Part shown: in pieces, positions 262-29,225 of the stretch
Numbering within the stretch: the stretch's first letter is position 1
Layout of the letters: each line of letters starts with the position of its first letter
NCBI RefSeq assembly: GCF_017656155.1
Contig: NZ_JACDOH010000001.1
Span: 248,001 to 312,000, forward strand
DNA length: 64,000 nucleotides
Reading direction: 5' to 3'
Source of the DNA: Thermosyntropha sp.
GTDB lineage: Bacteria > Bacillota > Syntrophomonadia > Syntrophomonadales > Syntrophomonadaceae
Program-made: the position numbers and the translations under genes
The notes under the pieces: generated by a model
Database searches by the model: none
Seen by the model: the letters and a program-made list of their open reading frames with translations, nothing else
Told to the model about the DNA's origin: nothing

Positions 262-1887
262 TTAATTTTCAGAAATTGTTGATTCTTCAGTTGTTTCGGA
301 AGATGGAGGTTTTAAAGTGTCTTCGGAAGTCAGATCCTGGTCATGTTCTGTGATGGTTTGGATATTTTCATCGTTTTTTTCTGGGGCTTCATTTGTTTGT
401 TCTTCAGTTGTTTCGGAAGATGACGGGTTTAAAGTATCTTCGGAAGTCAGATCTTGGTCATGTTCTGTGATGGTTTGGATATTTTCATCGTCTTTTTCCG
501 GAATTTCATTTGTTTGCTCTTCGGTTGTTTCAGAGAATGATGGGTTTAAATTATCTTCAGAGGTTAAATCCTGCTCATGTTCCGGAATAGTTTGAGTATT
601 TTCATCGTCTTTTTCCGGGACTTCAGCATAGTCGGCAGGAAGTGATGCTAAAAGTTGGGCATGTTTAAGATACCAGGGACATGGATTCCACAGAGTTCCG
701 ATGCCTATTATATCTAGGTGGTCATACCCTTCTAAAACTCCCATGTAATTCCACACCCCTCTGCGTGGATTGCCATCATAGTTTATTATCTGGTCGGTCG
801 AATTTATCTTGGGGCCATTCTGGGATATAAGGCTTACTAAGCCGTCGTTAGGCCACCATGTTTTATCTATAGGAACCTGCCCTGGAACATTGCGGGTATA
901 TGAACCTATATGCAGAGCAAAAGGCACTAGAAAGAGATTCATGGTGATTTTTGGGACTTGATAGTCAGCAAAAAGGAATTTGCGGGTGGCGTTGGTTGCC
1001 CAAGAGAAATAATATACATTTTCCTGTGCCTGGACCCAGCCATTGAGTTCGCGAGCACCTTCAACCGCCAAGTCCCAGTTGGAAAGGTCACGGTTTAATT
1101 TCCAGTAGCTGCTTTCGAAAACGCGTTTCAGGTAGGCATCAACCGGTTCTCCTTGGTATCTGGTAAGACCGAACTGGTCGAGTTTTAAATCGTAAAGCTG
1201 GTTGGGGGTGCTGAGTGTTGACATAAATCCAATAAAGCTCTGTAGCCAGGGCATTCCTTTATTTATTGCGTTATCCAGTGAGGTTCCATCGTGAGGAGTG
1301 GAAATAGTAGTTATGCTGTGCACCCAGGAGTGGCCGCCGGCAAATAAAGGAGAAAGATTATCTTGGGTGTAGGATCTTTCTTCTTCTGCTCCTTGTTCTA
1401 AAAGCTGAACTAAAGTGCGAATGGTTTGTCCACCCATGCTGTGCCCTATGAGGTGAACTTTTTTAATTTCGCCGGTTTCCGGATCAACCTTTCCTAAATC
1501 TGGGATAAATGCTTTATAGGTTCTGCCATATCTTGCATGTCCGTATTTGGCAGCATGAGCTGCTCCATAGTCGACTGTGCCCCCTACCAGCTGTGCATAC
1601 AGTTCACACGCTCTATCCCAGTTGCTGGAAACAGGGCCTACTGCGGCTGTATGGACTTCATATCCATGGGCCTTGAGGTATTCTTGAATGTCATAAAGGC
1701 CTCCCCAATATTTGAAGTCGAGCATTTCGTCGCGACCAAATCCGCCGAGCCCGTGAACCAGGACTATCGGATAGCGGTTGCCGCTTTGAGGGGTAGCTGT
1801 TTCTGCTAGAGCGGGAAGAAGTGAACTGATGTTGAGAAAAAATAAAGAAAGAATAAAAATAGCTAGGGATTTAAAGTTTTTTTTCAT
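262..1887 (-). CDS. secreted triacylglycerol lipase (family I.5/I.6-like) with C-terminal acidic repeats
   Basis: Extracellular lipase of 541 aa that should hydrolyse triglycerides to fatty acids. A signal peptide (about residues 1-28, ending ALA) precedes an alpha/beta-hydrolase domain. That domain closely follows the large thermophilic Geobacillus lipases: VLVHGLGGFG for the oxyanion region, the FKYWGG and GPVSSNWDRACE segments, and HAAKYGHARYGRTY. The nucleophile is Ser150 in GHSMGGQ; a candidate catalytic Asp lies in WWPNDGLV and His in GYDHLDIIGI. The GxSxG form with Met is more like staphylococcal lipases than the AHSQGG of Geobacillus. After about residue 422 come three near-identical 39-residue acidic repeats (PEKDDEN..., about residues 423-541), which are not part of the lipase fold. 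In a fatty-acid oxidiser this enzyme would supply substrate. The start has AAGGAGG eight bases upstream. Confidence 0.93.
   Translation of the reverse strand: MKKNFKSLAIFILSLFFLNISSLLPALAETATPQSGNRYPIVLVHGLGGFGRDEMLDFKYWGGLYDIQEYLKAHGYEVHTAAVGPVSSNWDRACELYAQLVGGTVDYGAAHAAKYGHARYGRTYKAFIPDLGKVDPETGEIKKVHLIGHSMGGQTIRTLVQLLEQGAEEERSYTQDNLSPLFAGGHSWVHSITTISTPHDGTSLDNAINKGMPWLQSFIGFMSTLSTPNQLYDLKLDQFGLTRYQGEPVDAYLKRVFESSYWKLNRDLSNWDLAVEGARELNGWVQAQENVYYFSWATNATRKFLFADYQVPKITMNLFLVPFALHIGSYTRNVPGQVPIDKTWWPNDGLVSLISQNGPKINSTDQIINYDGNPRRGVWNYMGVLEGYDHLDIIGIGTLWNPCPWYLKHAQLLASLPADYAEVPEKDDENTQTIPEHEQDLTSEDNLNPSFSETTEEQTNEIPEKDDENIQTITEHDQDLTSEDTLNPSSSETTEEQTNEAPEKNDENIQTITEHDQDLTSEDTLKPPSSETTEESTISEN
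265..621 (-). repeat. three tandem 117-bp coding repeats in the lipase C-terminus
   Basis: Three in-frame copies of a 39-codon unit (residues 423-461, 462-500, 501-541). Each reads PEK(D/N)DEN.QTI.EH(D/E)QDLTSED.L.PS.SETTEE. The copies are very similar in DNA as well as protein, so they expanded recently or are kept alike by recombination. They are acidic and proline/serine/threonine rich, as expected for a disordered surface stalk or linker. Confidence 0.9.
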
Positions 1888-20052: not shown

Positions 20053-20808
20053 CTAGCCTCCAAAACTCCAGTCTTGTAAACCATAATCTTGTATTCTGAC
20101 TTCTAAAGTCCAAGGATTAGAAGTACCACGCTTTATTTCGATATATGTTCCACCCATTTGTCCCATAATAGGGGTTTGAACAATATATTCATTACTCCAA
20201 TAGGGGTTTAATGTATACCACTGTCCGGGAGTATCAATATTTCTGGAAGTAAAAGCAGTATTAAAAGGAGAGTTACCTATCGTTGTGCCGTTATAAGTTT
20301 CCCCAAAAGCTCTAGCATATACTTTTGTCGTAGTATATGTTACAGTATTATCCAACCTATCATATCTACCTTCCCATTTAGATATTCTATTAAAAGTCAT
20401 TCCATCTCTAGTCTGGCTTCCTGCAAAATATGCTCGCACATAAGCACGGGTTGTTATAGCGGGGTCAGTTCGATTTTTTTCGTCTGTGTATGAGTCTGTA
20501 GCAAAAACTGTGATTCGATAAATATTTTCAATTTGATTGGTTTGGAGGTTTAAAATATCTCTAAATTTTTCTTTGACAACATAACAATTAACTTTTTGCC
20601 CATTTACAAAAGCAGATATTTTTTCTCCTGTTGGTAATTCATTAAAGATTTGTGCATCTTTCAATATATTATCTAAATTATTGTCAAGATGATACTCTTT
20701 TAATATAATTTCTTTACCATACAAATCTTCTTCTAATCCAAAGGCTGAACAAGGATTAGAGTAAATAGCTATAAAACATATCAATAATCCAATTATTAAC
20801 TTCCTCAT
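20053..20808 (-). CDS. secreted protein of unknown function
   Basis: 251 aa with a signal peptide (about 1-22, IIGLLICFIAIYSNPCSAFG). The mature part has many Thr, Tyr, Asn and Arg residues (AITTRAYVRAYFAGSQTRDG, YTTTKVYARAFGETYNG), suggesting an extracellular beta-rich fold. No family recognised. GGGATGGG lies before the ATG. Likely co-transcribed with the membrane protein downstream. Confidence 0.65.
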   Translation of the reverse strand: MRKLIIGLLICFIAIYSNPCSAFGLEEDLYGKEIILKEYHLDNNLDNILKDAQIFNELPTGEKISAFVNGQKVNCYVVKEKFRDILNLQTNQIENIYRITVFATDSYTDEKNRTDPAITTRAYVRAYFAGSQTRDGMTFNRISKWEGRYDRLDNTVTYTTTKVYARAFGETYNGTTIGNSPFNTAFTSRNIDTPGQWYTLNPYWSNEYIVQTPIMGQMGGTYIEIKRGTSNPWTLEVRIQDYGLQDWSFGG

Positions 20809-21314: not shown

Positions 21315-22665
21315 AAGGGGTAAAAAAAGGACTTCACCCCTTATCTTGCCGAATTTTATAGGTGACGAAACCCAAAATGCAAGGAGGCGAAGTCACTTAT
21401 GTATATTCGACAAGGCTGTGTTTTTTCCTTTGAGGATGCATTAAAAATTCAACCTCAATCTAGACTTGAAAAAATAATTAACACCCTTGACTATAAACCA
21501 GTTCTTGACAAATTTAACAGATCCGACAGTAAATCTGGTCCGAAACCATATCCGACTTATGCTATGCTAAATGCTCTAATTGCTATGCGTCTGGAGAACA
21601 TGAATAGTTTTAGCCAACTGGTCGAACGACTTAAGTATGATGGCTATTTACGTTACGTTTGTGGCTTTGAGGTTTTTGGAAAGACACCCAGTATAGCCTC
21701 TTTTAGCCGTTTTTACTCCAAGATCATAGAAGATGATTGCCTTAAAGTCTTGTTTTCATCAGTAGTTAACCAAGCCGAAGAAATGGGACTACTCGATCTT
21801 AGTGCTGTAGCCATTGACTCCAGTAAGGTTGAAGCCTATGAAAAGGCAGTACCCAACAAGAAGATTGCCAAGGATGGGAAATCAGCCAACTGGGGTATTA
21901 AGAGTGATACTAATGGTAACCCCATAAAATGGTTTGGTTATAAACTACATATCGTAACTGACGTAAAATCTGGGCTTCCTGTAGCTATTAAGGTAACACC
22001 AGCCAATGTTACTGATGCTAGTGTAGTTGAAGAGATTCTGGAACTAACTGCTGAGAATATACATTCCCGGATATGCTACTACCTGATGGATTCGGGTTAT
22101 GACCAAAACAATGTATATTCACTAATCAGAGATAAGTATCAGGCTCAAGCTATTATTGCACTCAACAATCGGAGTGCTAAACAGCCTAAAACAGGCTTGG
22201 ATTGGAACGGAACCCCCATCTGTTCTGCTGGTTACAGGATGGTATACTGGGGATCTTACAAAGGTGAAAACAAGTTCCGCTGTCCTCATGTCTTGGGTAA
22301 ATGTAATTGTCCTTTTGGTTCTGCCTGGTGTTCTGAAAGCAACTATGGAATGGTAGTAAAAACCCGAGTTAAGGACAATCCTCGCTTGTTTTGCACACCC
22401 CACCAGGGTACTGCTAAATGGCAAAAACTTTATAACTTGCGCACCTATTCGGAACGTTGCTTCAGCCGCTTTAAAGAAAACTTAGGCTTAGAAACCGGGT
22501 TAACCGTACGTAAGATTAAGAAAGTAGAAGCTCATGCTTATCTTTGTGCAATAACAATGATTGCGGCTGTAATATCAGTTAACCAGGAAAATAATATTAA
22601 GTCGTCAGCAGCATAGCATTTTATCAGGTTTTTAAAGAACTCTCCCTTCAAAGGGGGAAGTATGC
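21315..22665 (+). mobile_element. insertion sequence with DDE transposase (ends not defined)
   Basis: Contains the intact transposase gene at 21399-22616. A hairpin AAGGGGT/ACCCCTT (21315-21342) lies just before the gene. I could not find convincing terminal inverted repeats or a target-site duplication, so these limits are approximate. Confidence 0.55.
21399..22616 (+). CDS. transposase, IS4/IS5-group DDE type
   Basis: 405 aa, full length. The N-terminal DUF772-like region (KPYPTYAMLNALIAMRLENM, FSQLVERLKYDGYLRYVCGF) is followed by the DDE domain: first Asp in AVAIDSSKVEAY, second Asp in CYYLMDSGYD, and Glu in RTYSERCFSRFKENLGLE (YREK-like). An insertion of about 80 residues between the second Asp and the Glu contains a cysteine-rich part (CPHVLGKCNCPFGSAWC), possibly metal binding. 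AAGGAGG precedes the ATG. The exact IS family is uncertain. No frameshift is visible, so it may be active. Confidence 0.88.
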   Translation: MYIRQGCVFSFEDALKIQPQSRLEKIINTLDYKPVLDKFNRSDSKSGPKPYPTYAMLNALIAMRLENMNSFSQLVERLKYDGYLRYVCGFEVFGKTPSIASFSRFYSKIIEDDCLKVLFSSVVNQAEEMGLLDLSAVAIDSSKVEAYEKAVPNKKIAKDGKSANWGIKSDTNGNPIKWFGYKLHIVTDVKSGLPVAIKVTPANVTDASVVEEILELTAENIHSRICYYLMDSGYDQNNVYSLIRDKYQAQAIIALNNRSAKQPKTGLDWNGTPICSAGYRMVYWGSYKGENKFRCPHVLGKCNCPFGSAWCSESNYGMVVKTRVKDNPRLFCTPHQGTAKWQKLYNLRTYSERCFSRFKENLGLETGLTVRKIKKVEAHAYLCAITMIAAVISVNQENNIKSSAA

Positions 22666-26160: not shown

Positions 26161-26577
26161 TTAGTTTTTGGGGTTGATGATGTGGTTAAATGTGACAGTG
26201 TATGCTAAAATTCCAAATATAACATAAAATATAATGGCTGAGATCAGACAATAATAACATATTTGCGGGGCCCATTTGAATTGAGAAAATTGTAATGCAG
26301 AAGCGATAACTGCACACAAAGCAGCAATTATCAAGCTTAAGTATTTACACCAGTTAAACCGTAGTGATAAAGACATTAACAAGCAAAGCATTAATGCAGC
26401 TCCGGCTCCGATTAAAGCTATGCCAGCATCGGAAATAGGAAGAAAAAGGAATTTACCGTTACACGACTCACAGTTTGTGTTTGCAGGGTTATATTTAGTC
26501 CAGGCTGTATAAATGAGCAATAAAGTGTTAATTAAACATAGAGCAGTAGTGTATCTATAAAAATTTTTTTCAATCAC
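26161..26577 (-). CDS. VKOR/DsbB-like membrane thiol oxidoreductase
   Basis: 138 aa with four predicted membrane helices. A loop pair NCESCNGK follows helix 1, and a second pair ICYYCLISA opens the last helix. Two cysteine pairs in this arrangement are the hallmark of vitamin K epoxide reductase-like and DsbB-like disulfide-forming enzymes. Its ATG overlaps the end of the upstream two-TM gene, so the two are translationally coupled. It lies downstream of a ten-cysteine bacteriocin-like precursor, so I infer that it forms that peptide's disulfides. Assignment is by motif only. Confidence 0.65.
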   Translation of the reverse strand: MIEKNFYRYTTALCLINTLLLIYTAWTKYNPANTNCESCNGKFLFLPISDAGIALIGAGAALMLCLLMSLSLRFNWCKYLSLIIAALCAVIASALQFSQFKWAPQICYYCLISAIIFYVIFGILAYTVTFNHIINPKN

Positions 26578-26842
26578 GGCGTATCCCTCTTTTAGTTTTT
26601 TTTATTGAATTAAAGCGTTTTTCATGGTATTTATAAATAAGAAAATAGGCGATTAATATTACGGATACTCCGGTAATTAATCCTGGCAGAAAAGCATTAT
26701 TATACTTTTTTATTATGTTAGCTGATAGAGTAGCGATCATCATGATTATAAAGCCTAAGAAAAAATTTGCGGTTATTTTTGACTTTCTGTTTAAAAAAAC
26801 AATATTATTAAAATGATTATAAAGATAAAATATATATGCCAC
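26570..26842 (-). CDS. small two-TM membrane protein of the bacteriocin-like locus
   Basis: 90 aa, two hydrophobic helices (ANFFLGFIIMMIATLSANII and LPGLITGVSVILIAYFLIY), then a Lys/Arg-rich tail ending KKTKRGIRRD. I do not recognise it. The GTG start is 17 bases after AAGGAGG, a long gap. Its position between the precursor gene and the VKOR-like gene makes an immunity or export-accessory role possible. Confidence 0.6.
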   Translation of the reverse strand: MAYIFYLYNHFNNIVFLNRKSKITANFFLGFIIMMIATLSANIIKKYNNAFLPGLITGVSVILIAYFLIYKYHEKRFNSIKKTKRGIRRD

Positions 26843-26962
26843 ATAGTGTGTTAGTTTTGCCTCCTTGTGAGAATGTTAGTAGAAAAAGTTAATTTTCGTT
26901 TATTAATATATTAAAATAACTGTATTTTGGTGTATTTGTTATGTTTTAAGAAGCAAAATAAC

Positions 26963-26995
26963 ATCATGATAGGACTTCTAAAGTCCTATCATGAT
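26963..26995 (-). terminator. intercistronic terminator/attenuator in the bacteriocin-like locus
   Basis: Perfect 15-bp stem ATCATGATAGGACTT/AAGTCCTATCATGAT with a 3-nt loop, 12 bases after the stop of the ten-cysteine frame. On the minus strand the tail is only moderately T-rich, which fits partial termination between a highly expressed precursor and its accessory genes. Confidence 0.7.
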
Positions 26996-27007: not shown

Positions 27008-27751
27008 CTAATAACCATAGGATGTGCAAAGGTTTTCACAATCTTTATACTTATCAAAAGCGTAACATACAGCCCACCAGATTGCGAAGCAAATAACTTC
27101 ACATGGAATGTTTTCTAGACCACCACAAACTACTGCACATTTCCAGGCGCCGAAACCATTACATCCAAAGCTTGTTATAGCATCGCATACCTTAACACAT
27201 GCACTATGTTTGGATAGTTTAATAACTGCATTTTGTTTTTCAATACTAACCTTTGGATTATCAGAATTTGAATTGATAGTAGTTTTAATTTCATCGCCGG
27301 TAGCTTCAACAGATCCGGAATAAATAACTTGACCATCAACGATATCATATATATCGACTTTTTTACCTGATGAGGAGAAAATTCCAGCAGTATATCTTGT
27401 TTTTCCATCAGTATTCGAATATGCAATTCTTACGTTGTTGTTAAGCCATAAGATTACTATATTACCGATTTTCTTTCCTAATGTACATTATAAAGACTTT
27501 GATTTTTTGATAACATAATTGTCACCAGCTAATGTTTTTATCAGTAGTTTAACATTGTCATCTGCAAGTGCTTTTTTAAGCATATATTTATTATGTTTGT
27601 TGTTAAGAACAACAAAGTTTAATTTGAATTTTTGATCAATATATTGAGTTGCTGCATATCCGGCTAATGCTGGGGTTGTTATTAATGATAACATGATTAT
27701 AGTTGCAATTAGTTGCTTCCAATAAATTTTTTTTGATTTCTGAACACTCAC
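27008..27751 (-). pseudogene. halocin C8-like bacteriocin precursor interrupted by one in-frame TAA
   Basis: Read through one TAA (27488-27490), this 248-codon frame gives a coherent preproprotein. It has a GTG start after GGGAGG, a signal peptide (about 12-34, ending PALAGYAA), a propeptide of about 150 residues, and a C-terminal domain from about residue 180. That domain runs SACVKVCDAITSFGC, then WKCAVVCGG, IPCEVICFAIWWAVC and KDCENLC, ending TSYGY. It has exactly ten cysteines in short pairs between hydrophobic stretches, as in the haloarchaeal peptide halocin C8. The part after the TAA has no ATG, GTG or TTG in frame, so it cannot easily be made alone. Either the gene is newly inactivated, the stop is a sequence error, or it is read through. 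Family assignment is from memory of the cysteine pattern. Confidence 0.6.
27488..27751 (-). CDS. truncated N-terminal part of the bacteriocin-like precursor
   Basis: The 87-aa product that would be made if the TAA at 27488 is obeyed: a signal peptide (WKQLIATIIMLSLITTPALA) and the first part of the propeptide, with no cysteine. On its own it has no recognisable function. GTG start, GGGAGG nine bases upstream. Confidence 0.5.
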   Translation of the reverse strand: MSVQKSKKIYWKQLIATIIMLSLITTPALAGYAATQYIDQKFKLNFVVLNNKHNKYMLKKALADDNVKLLIKTLAGDNYVIKKSKSL

Positions 27752-28141
27752 ACTTTATTACCTCCCTTTTAACACCCATGAGTAGGTTTGTGCGTGAATT
27801 AAGCTATTTATATTTTTGTTTTTATATTTATGAACAAAATTTGGTCAATTTGCTGGTGTAATTTAAGGTTATATACTTTATTAAAACTTATTGAATTTAA
27901 TTAGTCTTCAAACAAGCAATTAAACCACCTCCTTACAACTTTTAAAACAATAACCACTTATTTCTATTGTTTATAAAATAACCCAAAAAAAAAAATAAAG
28001 TCAATCCAAAAAGAAAAGTTTAATGGTGTTTAATTTTAAATTGGAGATTTTAAAGAATGGATTTGAGAAAAACAAATTATTTTTTGAGTGATGACAGTAT
28101 AATAAATTACTGAAATAATTGTAATTTGTAATTATCTATCT
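27752..28141. other. long AT-rich leader region upstream of the bacteriocin-like gene
   Basis: No gene supported. On the minus strand TTGACT followed after 18 bases by TATTTT (around 27975-28005) is a possible promoter; the spacer contains an 11-T run. Downstream a very strong ribosome-binding sequence, AAGGAGGTGG (27925-27934), is followed only by short frames, so a tiny leader peptide or a decayed gene is possible. Confidence 0.35.
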
Positions 28142-29225
28142 AGCCCCCTAACCGAATTGGAGAAAAAGCATTTAAGTGATAAGATAAGAACTAAAAACGA
28201 GGGGTAATTAATAATATAAAAAAAGAGAATATACCTGGGAATTTAAAGAACAAATAATAAAAGAATGTCAGGAAATTAGCAATATAGCACTGGTTGCACG
28301 CAGACATAATATTTCTTCTAACACTATTCGAAACTGGATGCGAAAAATCAAACAAACAGGTTCATTAAATCCATTACCTAAAGATCAGGCAAAAAGAAAG
28401 CGAGAAATCGGGCTTTGTCCATCCACATATTATGAAAATATATCCAGAAGATGCAGCATTTCAGAGAAAAATAAGTCTGAAGAATATACTGCTCCTGAAA
28501 ACAATGGGGGAAGACCTGTTCCCGGGTATTCCCTTACCGGTAAAGGAGAAAAAATACCTGATGAACAAATAAAAGAGTTCTTGTGCAAATTAGTTTGCGG
28601 TGACGACTTTTCCTATGGTTATAACAAACTTACCATCTGTATTAGAGAAGATTATGACCTTAAAATAAACCGTAAAAAAGTTTACAGACTTTGTAAGGAG
28701 CTTAATATTCTTAAACCTCAGCGTAAAAAACGTATTTTTCTTTCAATTGTCACTTATAGATGTATTTGATCGTTCAGTTATTGATTATCATCTGGGATTA
28801 TCCTGCACAGCTAAAGACGCTGTCAAAGTCTTAAAGAACTCCTCAATAAAAAGGAAACTTACTAAAGGAATAAAGCTTCCTAAAATAAAGAAGATAATGG
28901 GCCACAATTTACAGCTAACCAATTTAAAAAAACGATGGAAGAATTAGGATTATTCCATGAAAGAATCCCTGTAAAAACGCCCAATATAAATGCTCATACA
29001 GAATCGTTCCACGCAATTTTAGAAGATGAGTGCTACAGCCAAAATGAGTTTGACAGCTTTATGGATGCTTACCAGGTTATAACAGAATATATGGAATTTT
29101 ATAATCAGCGCCGAAGAAATGGAAGTATAAATTTTATGACTCCAAATGGATTTTACGAAGCATTTATGAGTAATTCTGTAAAACTTGAATCTTTTAGTGC
29201 ATAATCTCCGGATTTGGAGGGTCAA
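28142..29225 (+). mobile_element. decayed IS3-family-like insertion sequence
   Basis: Holds a broken orfA-orfB transposase. The flanks show weak inverted similarity (left TAGCCCCCTAACCGAATTGG, right end in reverse TGACCCTCCAAATCCGGAG), which may be the original ends. Limits are tentative. Confidence 0.5.
28215..29204 (+). pseudogene. IS3-family transposase, fragmented
   Basis: Three frames together give one damaged transposase. The first, from 28215 with no start codon, has an orfA helix-turn-helix (EFKEQIIKECQEISNIALVA, NISSNTIRNWMRKIK). It runs into orfB-like sequence (FSYGYNKLTICIREDYDLKI, RLCKELNILKPQRKKR). The second, about 28747-28947, begins in LSLIDVFDRSVIDYHLG. The third, 28935-29204, has the end of the catalytic core (NINAHTESFHAILEDE, YNQRRRNGSINFMTPNGF). 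The segment with the first catalytic Asp is deleted and two frameshifts are present, so it cannot be active. Confidence 0.8.

What the first reader, a model, noticed from the sequence alone, without database searches (positions are those of the whole stretch)
27008..27751. Hidden ten-cysteine halocin C8-like bacteriocin precursor split by one TAA
Reading the minus strand through a single in-frame TAA at 27488-27490 joins a secreted N-terminal fragment to a 159-codon frame with no start codon of its own. That frame ends in a domain with exactly ten cysteines in short pairs between hydrophobic stretches. Ten cysteines and a long propeptide are the layout of halocin C8, a peptide known mainly from haloarchaea. 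An ORF caller that needs a start codon misses the mature peptide. The intact frame on both sides of the stop, with no other lesion, argues for a very recent mutation, a sequence error, or readthrough.
Basis: partly seen in the sequence, partly recalled or inferred. Interest (0 to 1): 0.85.

Follow-up and report, generated by a model that had tools for sequence, protein, structure and literature searches.

The report
Broken gene for cysteine-rich bacteriocin-like peptide
The window carries a copy, broken by one stop codon, of a real but undescribed gene family in heat-loving anaerobic bacteria whose intact members should be exported and trimmed to a small disulfide-bonded peptide, probably a weapon against other bacteria; this strain has most likely lost the ability to make it.

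Summary
In detail: on the minus strand a GTG-started, secretion-signal frame (27751-27491) runs into one TAA (27490-27488) and continues for 159 codons with no ATG/GTG/TTG, ending in a ten-cysteine domain. It is not chance. Same-genus Thermosyntropha lipolytica has one uninterrupted 275-aa homologue, and a complete genome from another class has one of 255 aa; both run straight through the stop position. The window copy is a broken gene, and the neighbouring small membrane-protein gene seems damaged too. The third gene of the operon, a four-helix VKOR-like thiol oxidase with two CxxC motifs, is intact. Following that partner finds the same layout (signal, pro-region, cysteine-rich C-terminus, oxidase next door) in further genomes, at three loci beside agr-type regulatory genes. 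Of 13 precursor genes, four are cut by point lesions and two survive only as tails. 'Halocin C8-like' holds for layout only: the family's core pattern is twelve cysteines, the window copy lacks the first and last, the TIGR04449 model does not match it, and profile comparison with halocins gives only a weak signal. Best reading: a pseudogene of an undescribed family of secreted, disulfide-bonded, bacteriocin-like peptides. Antibacterial activity is inferred, not shown.

The parts
27761..27766 (-). Shine-Dalgarno sequence GGGAGG, 9 nt before the GTG start
   Evidence: direct reading
27488..27751 (-). 5' part of the precursor gene: 87 codons coding for the signal segment (LITTPALAG motif) and the first half of the pro-region, ended by the TAA
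   Evidence: homologous to the N-terminus of the intact proteins
27488..27490 (-). in-frame TAA, the lesion, at codon 88 of the precursor
   Evidence: intact homologues have no stop there
27008..27487 (-). 3' part of the precursor gene, 159 codons plus TAG: second half of the pro-region and the C-terminal Cys-rich peptide; no start codon
27011..27202 (-). ten-cysteine C-terminal domain, putative mature peptide; lacks the first and last Cys of the twelve-Cys core pattern
26963..26995 (-). 15-bp hairpin right after the precursor stop codon; T-rich tail, probably a partial terminator or mRNA stabiliser; same position in T. lipolytica and in G112
   Evidence: fold z -7.3 in the window, -4.6 and -8.1 in the two homologues
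26570..26844 (-). small membrane-protein gene, candidate immunity protein; ATG at 26844 opens a hydrophobic N-terminus (MWHIYFIFIIILIILFF*) that matches the G038 homologue, the rest matches in another frame, so probably frame-broken; the GTG at 26842 gives a 90-aa ORF
26161..26577 (-). VKOR-like four-helix thiol oxidase, 138 aa, intact, CxxC at residues 36-39 and 107-110

Best explanation
Minus-strand 27751-26161 is the decaying remnant of a three-gene operon for a secreted, disulfide-bonded peptide, most likely a bacteriocin. In intact relatives gene 1 codes for a pre-pro-protein: a Sec-type signal, a pro-region of about 150 residues and a C-terminal Cys-rich peptide of about 65-70 residues. 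Gene 2 is a small membrane protein, the best candidate for self-immunity. Gene 3 is a VKOR-like membrane oxidase that would put disulfides into the exported peptide. A hairpin after gene 1 would keep precursor mRNA above partner mRNA. Shown here: the family, its intact members, the linked oxidase with two invariant CxxC pairs, the hairpin at the three closest loci, the lesions. Inferred: export, pro-region cleavage, disulfide formation, membrane-active killing, immunity. In the window strain a nonsense mutation ends gene 1 inside the pro-region, so no mature peptide is made; gene 2 looks damaged as well; the oxidase gene is still intact.
For: Intact uninterrupted homologues in T. lipolytica (L004/L005, 275 aa) and G112 (L008, 255 aa), aligned through the stop, E 3e-19 and 4e-28. 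All ten window cysteines align. pN/pS 0.22 in the tail shared with G038. Same operon order precursor - membrane protein - VKOR-like in G112/G066 and, across two T. lipolytica contigs that overlap by 438 nt, in that species. VKOR-like identity: two invariant CxxC in 11 sequences; all four PDB sequences matched by their profile are VKORs; one relative sits beside a secreted thioredoxin-like gene (L049). Oxidase-linked precursors with the same leader in G393, G278, G035, G031, G089 and G130, and agr-type genes beside L047, L048 and L052, as is usual for regulated bacteriocins. Hairpin after gene 1. Second lesion in gene 2.
Against: No homologue has a tested activity. No dedicated ABC transporter or protease is linked. 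The membrane-protein gene differs between loci (4-helix type in G112 and T. lipolytica, another type in the window and G038). VKOR matches are below curated cut-offs (Pfam VKOR best E 0.028; PDB best E 0.11). The membrane protein's role as immunity is only by position. Nothing excludes a structural or adhesive role for the peptide.
Confidence: 0.62

Rival explanations
1. The TAA is a sequencing or assembly error and the strain has an intact, working precursor gene.
For: The rest of the frame is clean and all ten Cys are kept; pN/pS in the tail is low. G066 differs from intact G112 by only 3 positions in 768 nt, one of them a frameshift, a pattern that an error could also give.
Against: The stop is a substitution, not a homopolymer indel. 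The next gene shows a separate frame-breaking gap against its G038 homologue. Other genomes show the same kind of decay at other positions, and two hold only tails.
Confidence: 0.15
2. The gene is expressed by programmed readthrough, frameshifting or phase variation, and breaks in the pro-region are a regulatory feature of the family.
For: Four precursors in different genomes are broken by point lesions before the Cys-rich part (window, G066, G130, G278:C28), three of them with the oxidase gene intact.
Against: The lesions differ in kind and place (nonsense; loss of 1 nt; gain of 2 nt; frameshift) and none lies in a long slippery run. Near-identical intact copies exist (G112, G089). TAA is not decoded by known readthrough systems, and no Rfam element was found.
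Confidence: 0.04
3. It is a true (distant) member of the halocin C8 family.
For: Same layout (signal, long pro-region, Cys-rich C-terminus), CxxC at the start and C-x5-C at the end of the domain in intact members. hhalign of five family domains against four halocins aligns the whole domain, 0 of 150 Cys-fixed shuffles as good. One oxidase-linked domain (L051) scores 19.4 bits, E 0.0016, with TIGR04449.
Against: hhalign probability only 14-33%, and 5 of 200 Cys-fixed shuffles as good with three domains. A halocin HMM gives the window 9.5 bits, reached by 5 of 500 Cys-fixed shuffles, and gives L044 and L051 nothing. TIGR04449 below cut-off in all 396 genomes, where chance matches reach 19.1 bits. 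Twelve versus ten Cys with different spacing. Pro-regions unrelated.
Confidence: 0.2
4. The Cys-rich protein is not antimicrobial but an exported structural, adhesive, signalling or redox protein that also needs an oxidase.
For: No activity data. VKOR-like oxidases serve many exported proteins, and some relatives occur without a precursor (L049, L046).
Against: Patchy distribution, fast divergence of the C-terminus, repeated loss and agr-type genes at some loci fit bacteriocins better.
Confidence: 0.2

Closest known systems
Halocin C8 (proC8/HalI; NCBIfam TIGR04449)
   Same: Exported precursor with long pro-region and C-terminal Cys-rich hydrophobic peptide of about 70 residues; begins with CxxC and ends with C-x5-C in intact members.
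   Different: Haloarchaeal, Tat-exported, the pro-region itself is the immunity part (PMC11509114); ten Cys in another spacing; no oxidase gene among the annotated neighbours of three haloarchaeal copies. Here: bacterial, Sec-type signal, twelve-Cys core pattern, VKOR-like partner, unrelated pro-region.
Sublancin gene cluster with the BdbA/BdbB oxidoreductase pair, Bacillus subtilis
   Same: A disulfide-making membrane oxidoreductase is encoded with an antibacterial peptide (cluster layout from my own knowledge; PMC12445088 links BdbA to sublancin).
   Different: Sublancin is a short glycopeptide exported by a peptidase ABC transporter; here the precursor is 200-380 aa with an ordinary signal segment and no linked transporter.
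Closticin 574 (Clostridium tyrobutyricum)
   Same: Clostridial-type bacteriocin made from a long signal-bearing pro-protein with the active peptide at the C-terminus (own knowledge, not tested here).
   Different: Not known to me for a twelve-Cys pattern or a linked VKOR-like gene; no sequence comparison made.
VKOR family (PF07884; Synechococcus VKOR 3kp9/4nv2)
   Same: Four helices, CxxC redox pair in the last helix, profile matches only VKORs in the PDB.
   Different: About 140 aa, no fused thioredoxin domain, first Cys pair is CxxC, below the Pfam cut-off.

Membership tests
Halocin C8-like domain (TIGR04449) | score above the curated cut-off of 24 bits | tested here: not met
   no match for the window, L004 or L008; L051 19.4 and L044 11 bits; 0 of 396 genomes over cut-off
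Halocin C8-like domain (TIGR04449) | ten cysteines in halocin C8 spacing | tested here: not met
   the core family has 12 Cys, C-x2-C-x3-C-x7-C-x7-C-x3-C-x5/7-C-x3-C-x7-C-x8-C-x3-C-x5-C; the window's ten lack the outer two
Halocin C8-like domain (TIGR04449) | profile-level homology of the domain | tested here: inconclusive
   hhalign probability 14-33%; 5/200 and 0/150 Cys-fixed shuffles as good; halocin HMM 5/500
Halocin C8-like domain (TIGR04449) | pro-region homologous to HalI | tested here: not met
   hhalign probability 0.4, 2 of 150 shuffles as good
Bacteriocins in the wide sense | exported gene-encoded precursor with a separable peptide | tested here: inconclusive
   conserved hydrophobic leader and pro-region architecture; cleavage not shown
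Bacteriocins in the wide sense | kills related bacteria; linked gene gives immunity | not testable with these tools
   needs peptide assays
VKOR family (partner gene 26161-26577) | Pfam PF07884 gathering score | tested here: not met
   E 0.19 for the window, best member 0.028
VKOR family (partner gene 26161-26577) | two redox Cys pairs in a four-helix membrane protein | tested here: met
   both CxxC invariant in 11 sequences; four helices predicted, low confidence, pLDDT 63; PDB profile hits all VKOR
VKOR family (partner gene 26161-26577) | oxidises thiols with quinone | not testable with these tools
   needs biochemistry

The most novel reading that the evidence does not exclude
VKOR-partnered Cys-rich precursors are an unrecognised class of disulfide-knotted bacteriocins in thermophilic anaerobic Bacillota, distantly homologous to archaeal halocin C8, so that one peptide scaffold is used across the two prokaryote domains, with producers repeatedly turning into non-producers by breaking the precursor gene.
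Probability: 0.2. Interest if true: 0.62.

Novelty: new variant of a known kind. Interest (0 to 1): 0.42.

Why it matters
The window's own copy is a broken gene, which is ordinary. The family behind it is not in NCBIfam, Pfam or PHROGs at any useful score, and no paper in the searched library joins VKOR to bacteriocins in a relevant way. Intact members in cultivable or sequenced thermophiles (T. lipolytica and G112, probably Carboxydocella) give ready candidates for heat-stable, disulfide-bonded antimicrobial peptides, and the VKOR-like gene is a good search handle for more, because it is far better conserved than the peptide. The pattern of broken precursors beside intact partner genes offers a small natural data set on loss of toxin production.

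Tried and rejected
TIGR04449 over 101 relatives and 396 genomes of the phylum: nothing over cut-off. Pfam, NCBIfam and PHROGs on precursor and partners: no family. Plasmids, phages and viral contigs: no homologue, so no sign of a plasmid or phage carrier. AlphaFold models of precursor (pLDDT 40) and VKOR-like protein (pLDDT 63) were too poor; the Foldseek result for the latter is meaningless. Rfam: none. DUF4179 match of the N-terminus (E 0.0016, 0.033 for the full length) is below its cut-off and covers the signal segment and early pro-region; taken as chance. Halocin pro-region homology: rejected. Downstream restart: no ATG/GTG/TTG after the stop, and such a product would lack a signal. The first L004 domain alignment used a wrong frame and was redone.

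Full report
What is there. On the minus strand a GTG at 27751, 9 nt after GGGAGG, opens a frame with a hydrophobic signal segment (…LIATIIMLSLITTPALAGY…). After 87 codons it meets TAA at 27490-27488. The frame then stays open for 159 codons to a TAG ending at 27008, with no ATG, GTG or TTG. The final 64 residues hold ten cysteines.

It is a real gene, split. Search of relatives found homologues of the part after the stop in three other genomes, later five. Same-genus Thermosyntropha lipolytica (L004/L005, named) has one uninterrupted 275-aa ORF. G112, a two-contig genome of another class in the same phylum (from its size and contig number probably Carboxydocella, my inference), has one of 255 aa. 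The window protein, with X for the stop, aligns with both from signal to tail, E 3e-19 and 4e-28. Twelve cysteines are shared by the two intact proteins. The window keeps the inner ten and lacks the first and the last. The G038 tail also ends without the last one. Loss of both ends together suggests that they pair (inference). In the 33 codons shared by window and G038, pN/pS is 0.22: the frame was under selection as protein.

The lesion and its neighbours. No homologue ends at the TAA. The next gene (26844-26570) matches its G038 homologue in two frames with a gap of about 20 nt: the hydrophobic start MWHIYFIFIIILI in one, the rest in another. The operon therefore seems to carry two lesions, which favours decay over a sequencing error. 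The third gene (26577-26161) is intact and 52% identical to its G112 counterpart, far more than the precursor (about 24%).

The partner leads to a wider family. The third gene codes for a four-helix protein with two CxxC pairs. In 11 relatives both pairs are invariant; the only PDB sequences that its profile matches are VKOR structures, with weak E-values of 0.11-1.4; one relative sits beside a secreted thioredoxin-like gene (L049). I read it as a VKOR-like disulfide-making oxidase. Searching 396 genomes of the phylum with it and looking next door gave further precursors with the leader motif PAxxG: G393 (279 aa, C-terminus ending in GYCP), two in G278, G035, G031, G089 and G130. G393 joins the core family by sequence (2e-7 with G112), and G278:C28 joins G393 (1e-17); the others share mainly leader and partner. 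The loci in G278 (L047), G130 (L048) and G031 (L052) lie beside a histidine kinase, an AgrB-like protein and a LytTR-type regulator. The two T. lipolytica contigs with precursor and oxidase overlap by 438 nt, so the operon is whole there. A strong hairpin follows the precursor stop in window, G112 and T. lipolytica and is also present at L047 and L052.

Decay is common. G066 differs from intact G112 in 3 of 768 positions, one a single-base loss. G130 has two extra bases against the intact G089 copy. The G278:C28 precursor is frameshifted and its oxidase truncated. G038 and G099 hold only tails. That is 4 point-broken and 2 remnant precursors against 7 intact (T. lipolytica, G112, G393, G278:C13, G035, G031, G089). 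In the window, G066 and G130 the oxidase gene is intact. The lesions differ in kind and site, so I take them as losses, not as a programmed switch.

Halocin C8? Fetched haloarchaeal relatives share the layout, the opening CxxC and the closing C-x5-C. Homology is not established: TIGR04449 misses the window protein and reaches its cut-off nowhere in the phylum. hhalign gives 14-33% probability; with five domains no Cys-fixed shuffle of 150 did as well, with three domains 5 of 200 did. A halocin HMM gives the window 9.5 bits, reached by 5 of 500 Cys-fixed shuffles, and nothing for L044 or L051. The pro-regions are unrelated.

How it would work. In intact relatives the precursor would leave by the Sec route, the oxidase would close disulfides, an unknown protease would free the C-terminal peptide, and the peptide would act on membranes of competitors while the small membrane protein protects the producer. 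Only the sequence facts are shown; the activity steps are inference from architecture, operon and agr linkage. In the window strain the peptide is not expected to be made.

Limits.

Noticed in passing
26570-26844 (-): Small membrane-protein gene appears frame-broken near a run of seven T; its ATG-frame start matches the G038 homologue, the rest lies in another frame.
   Followed up: yes
28338-29204 (+): IS3-type transposase in three overlapping pieces (143, 66 and 89 aa), apparently a decayed insertion element upstream of the precursor gene; a related fragment lies near the operon end in T. lipolytica (L042 1867-2235).
   Followed up: no
21399-22616 (+): Intact-looking transposase ORF of 405 aa (IS1182/IS5-like by eye).
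   Followed up: no
262-1887 (-): Secreted lipase-like protein with a C-terminal acidic repeat (EKDDENxQTIxEHxQDLTSEDxLxPxSSETTEE), as fits the lipolytic genus.
   Followed up: no
20053-20808 (-): 251-aa secreted protein without known family assigned here, in an AT-rich stretch.
   Followed up: no
L050 2590-3738 and L048 4047-5200: Oxidase-linked leader proteins in G089/G130 whose C-terminus is long and Cys-poor: the same leader and partner seem to serve quite different cargo.
   Followed up: partly
L051 817-1660: Second G278 precursor, frameshifted, whose C-terminal domain gives the best halocin C8 model score seen among the loci (19.4 bits).
   Followed up: partly
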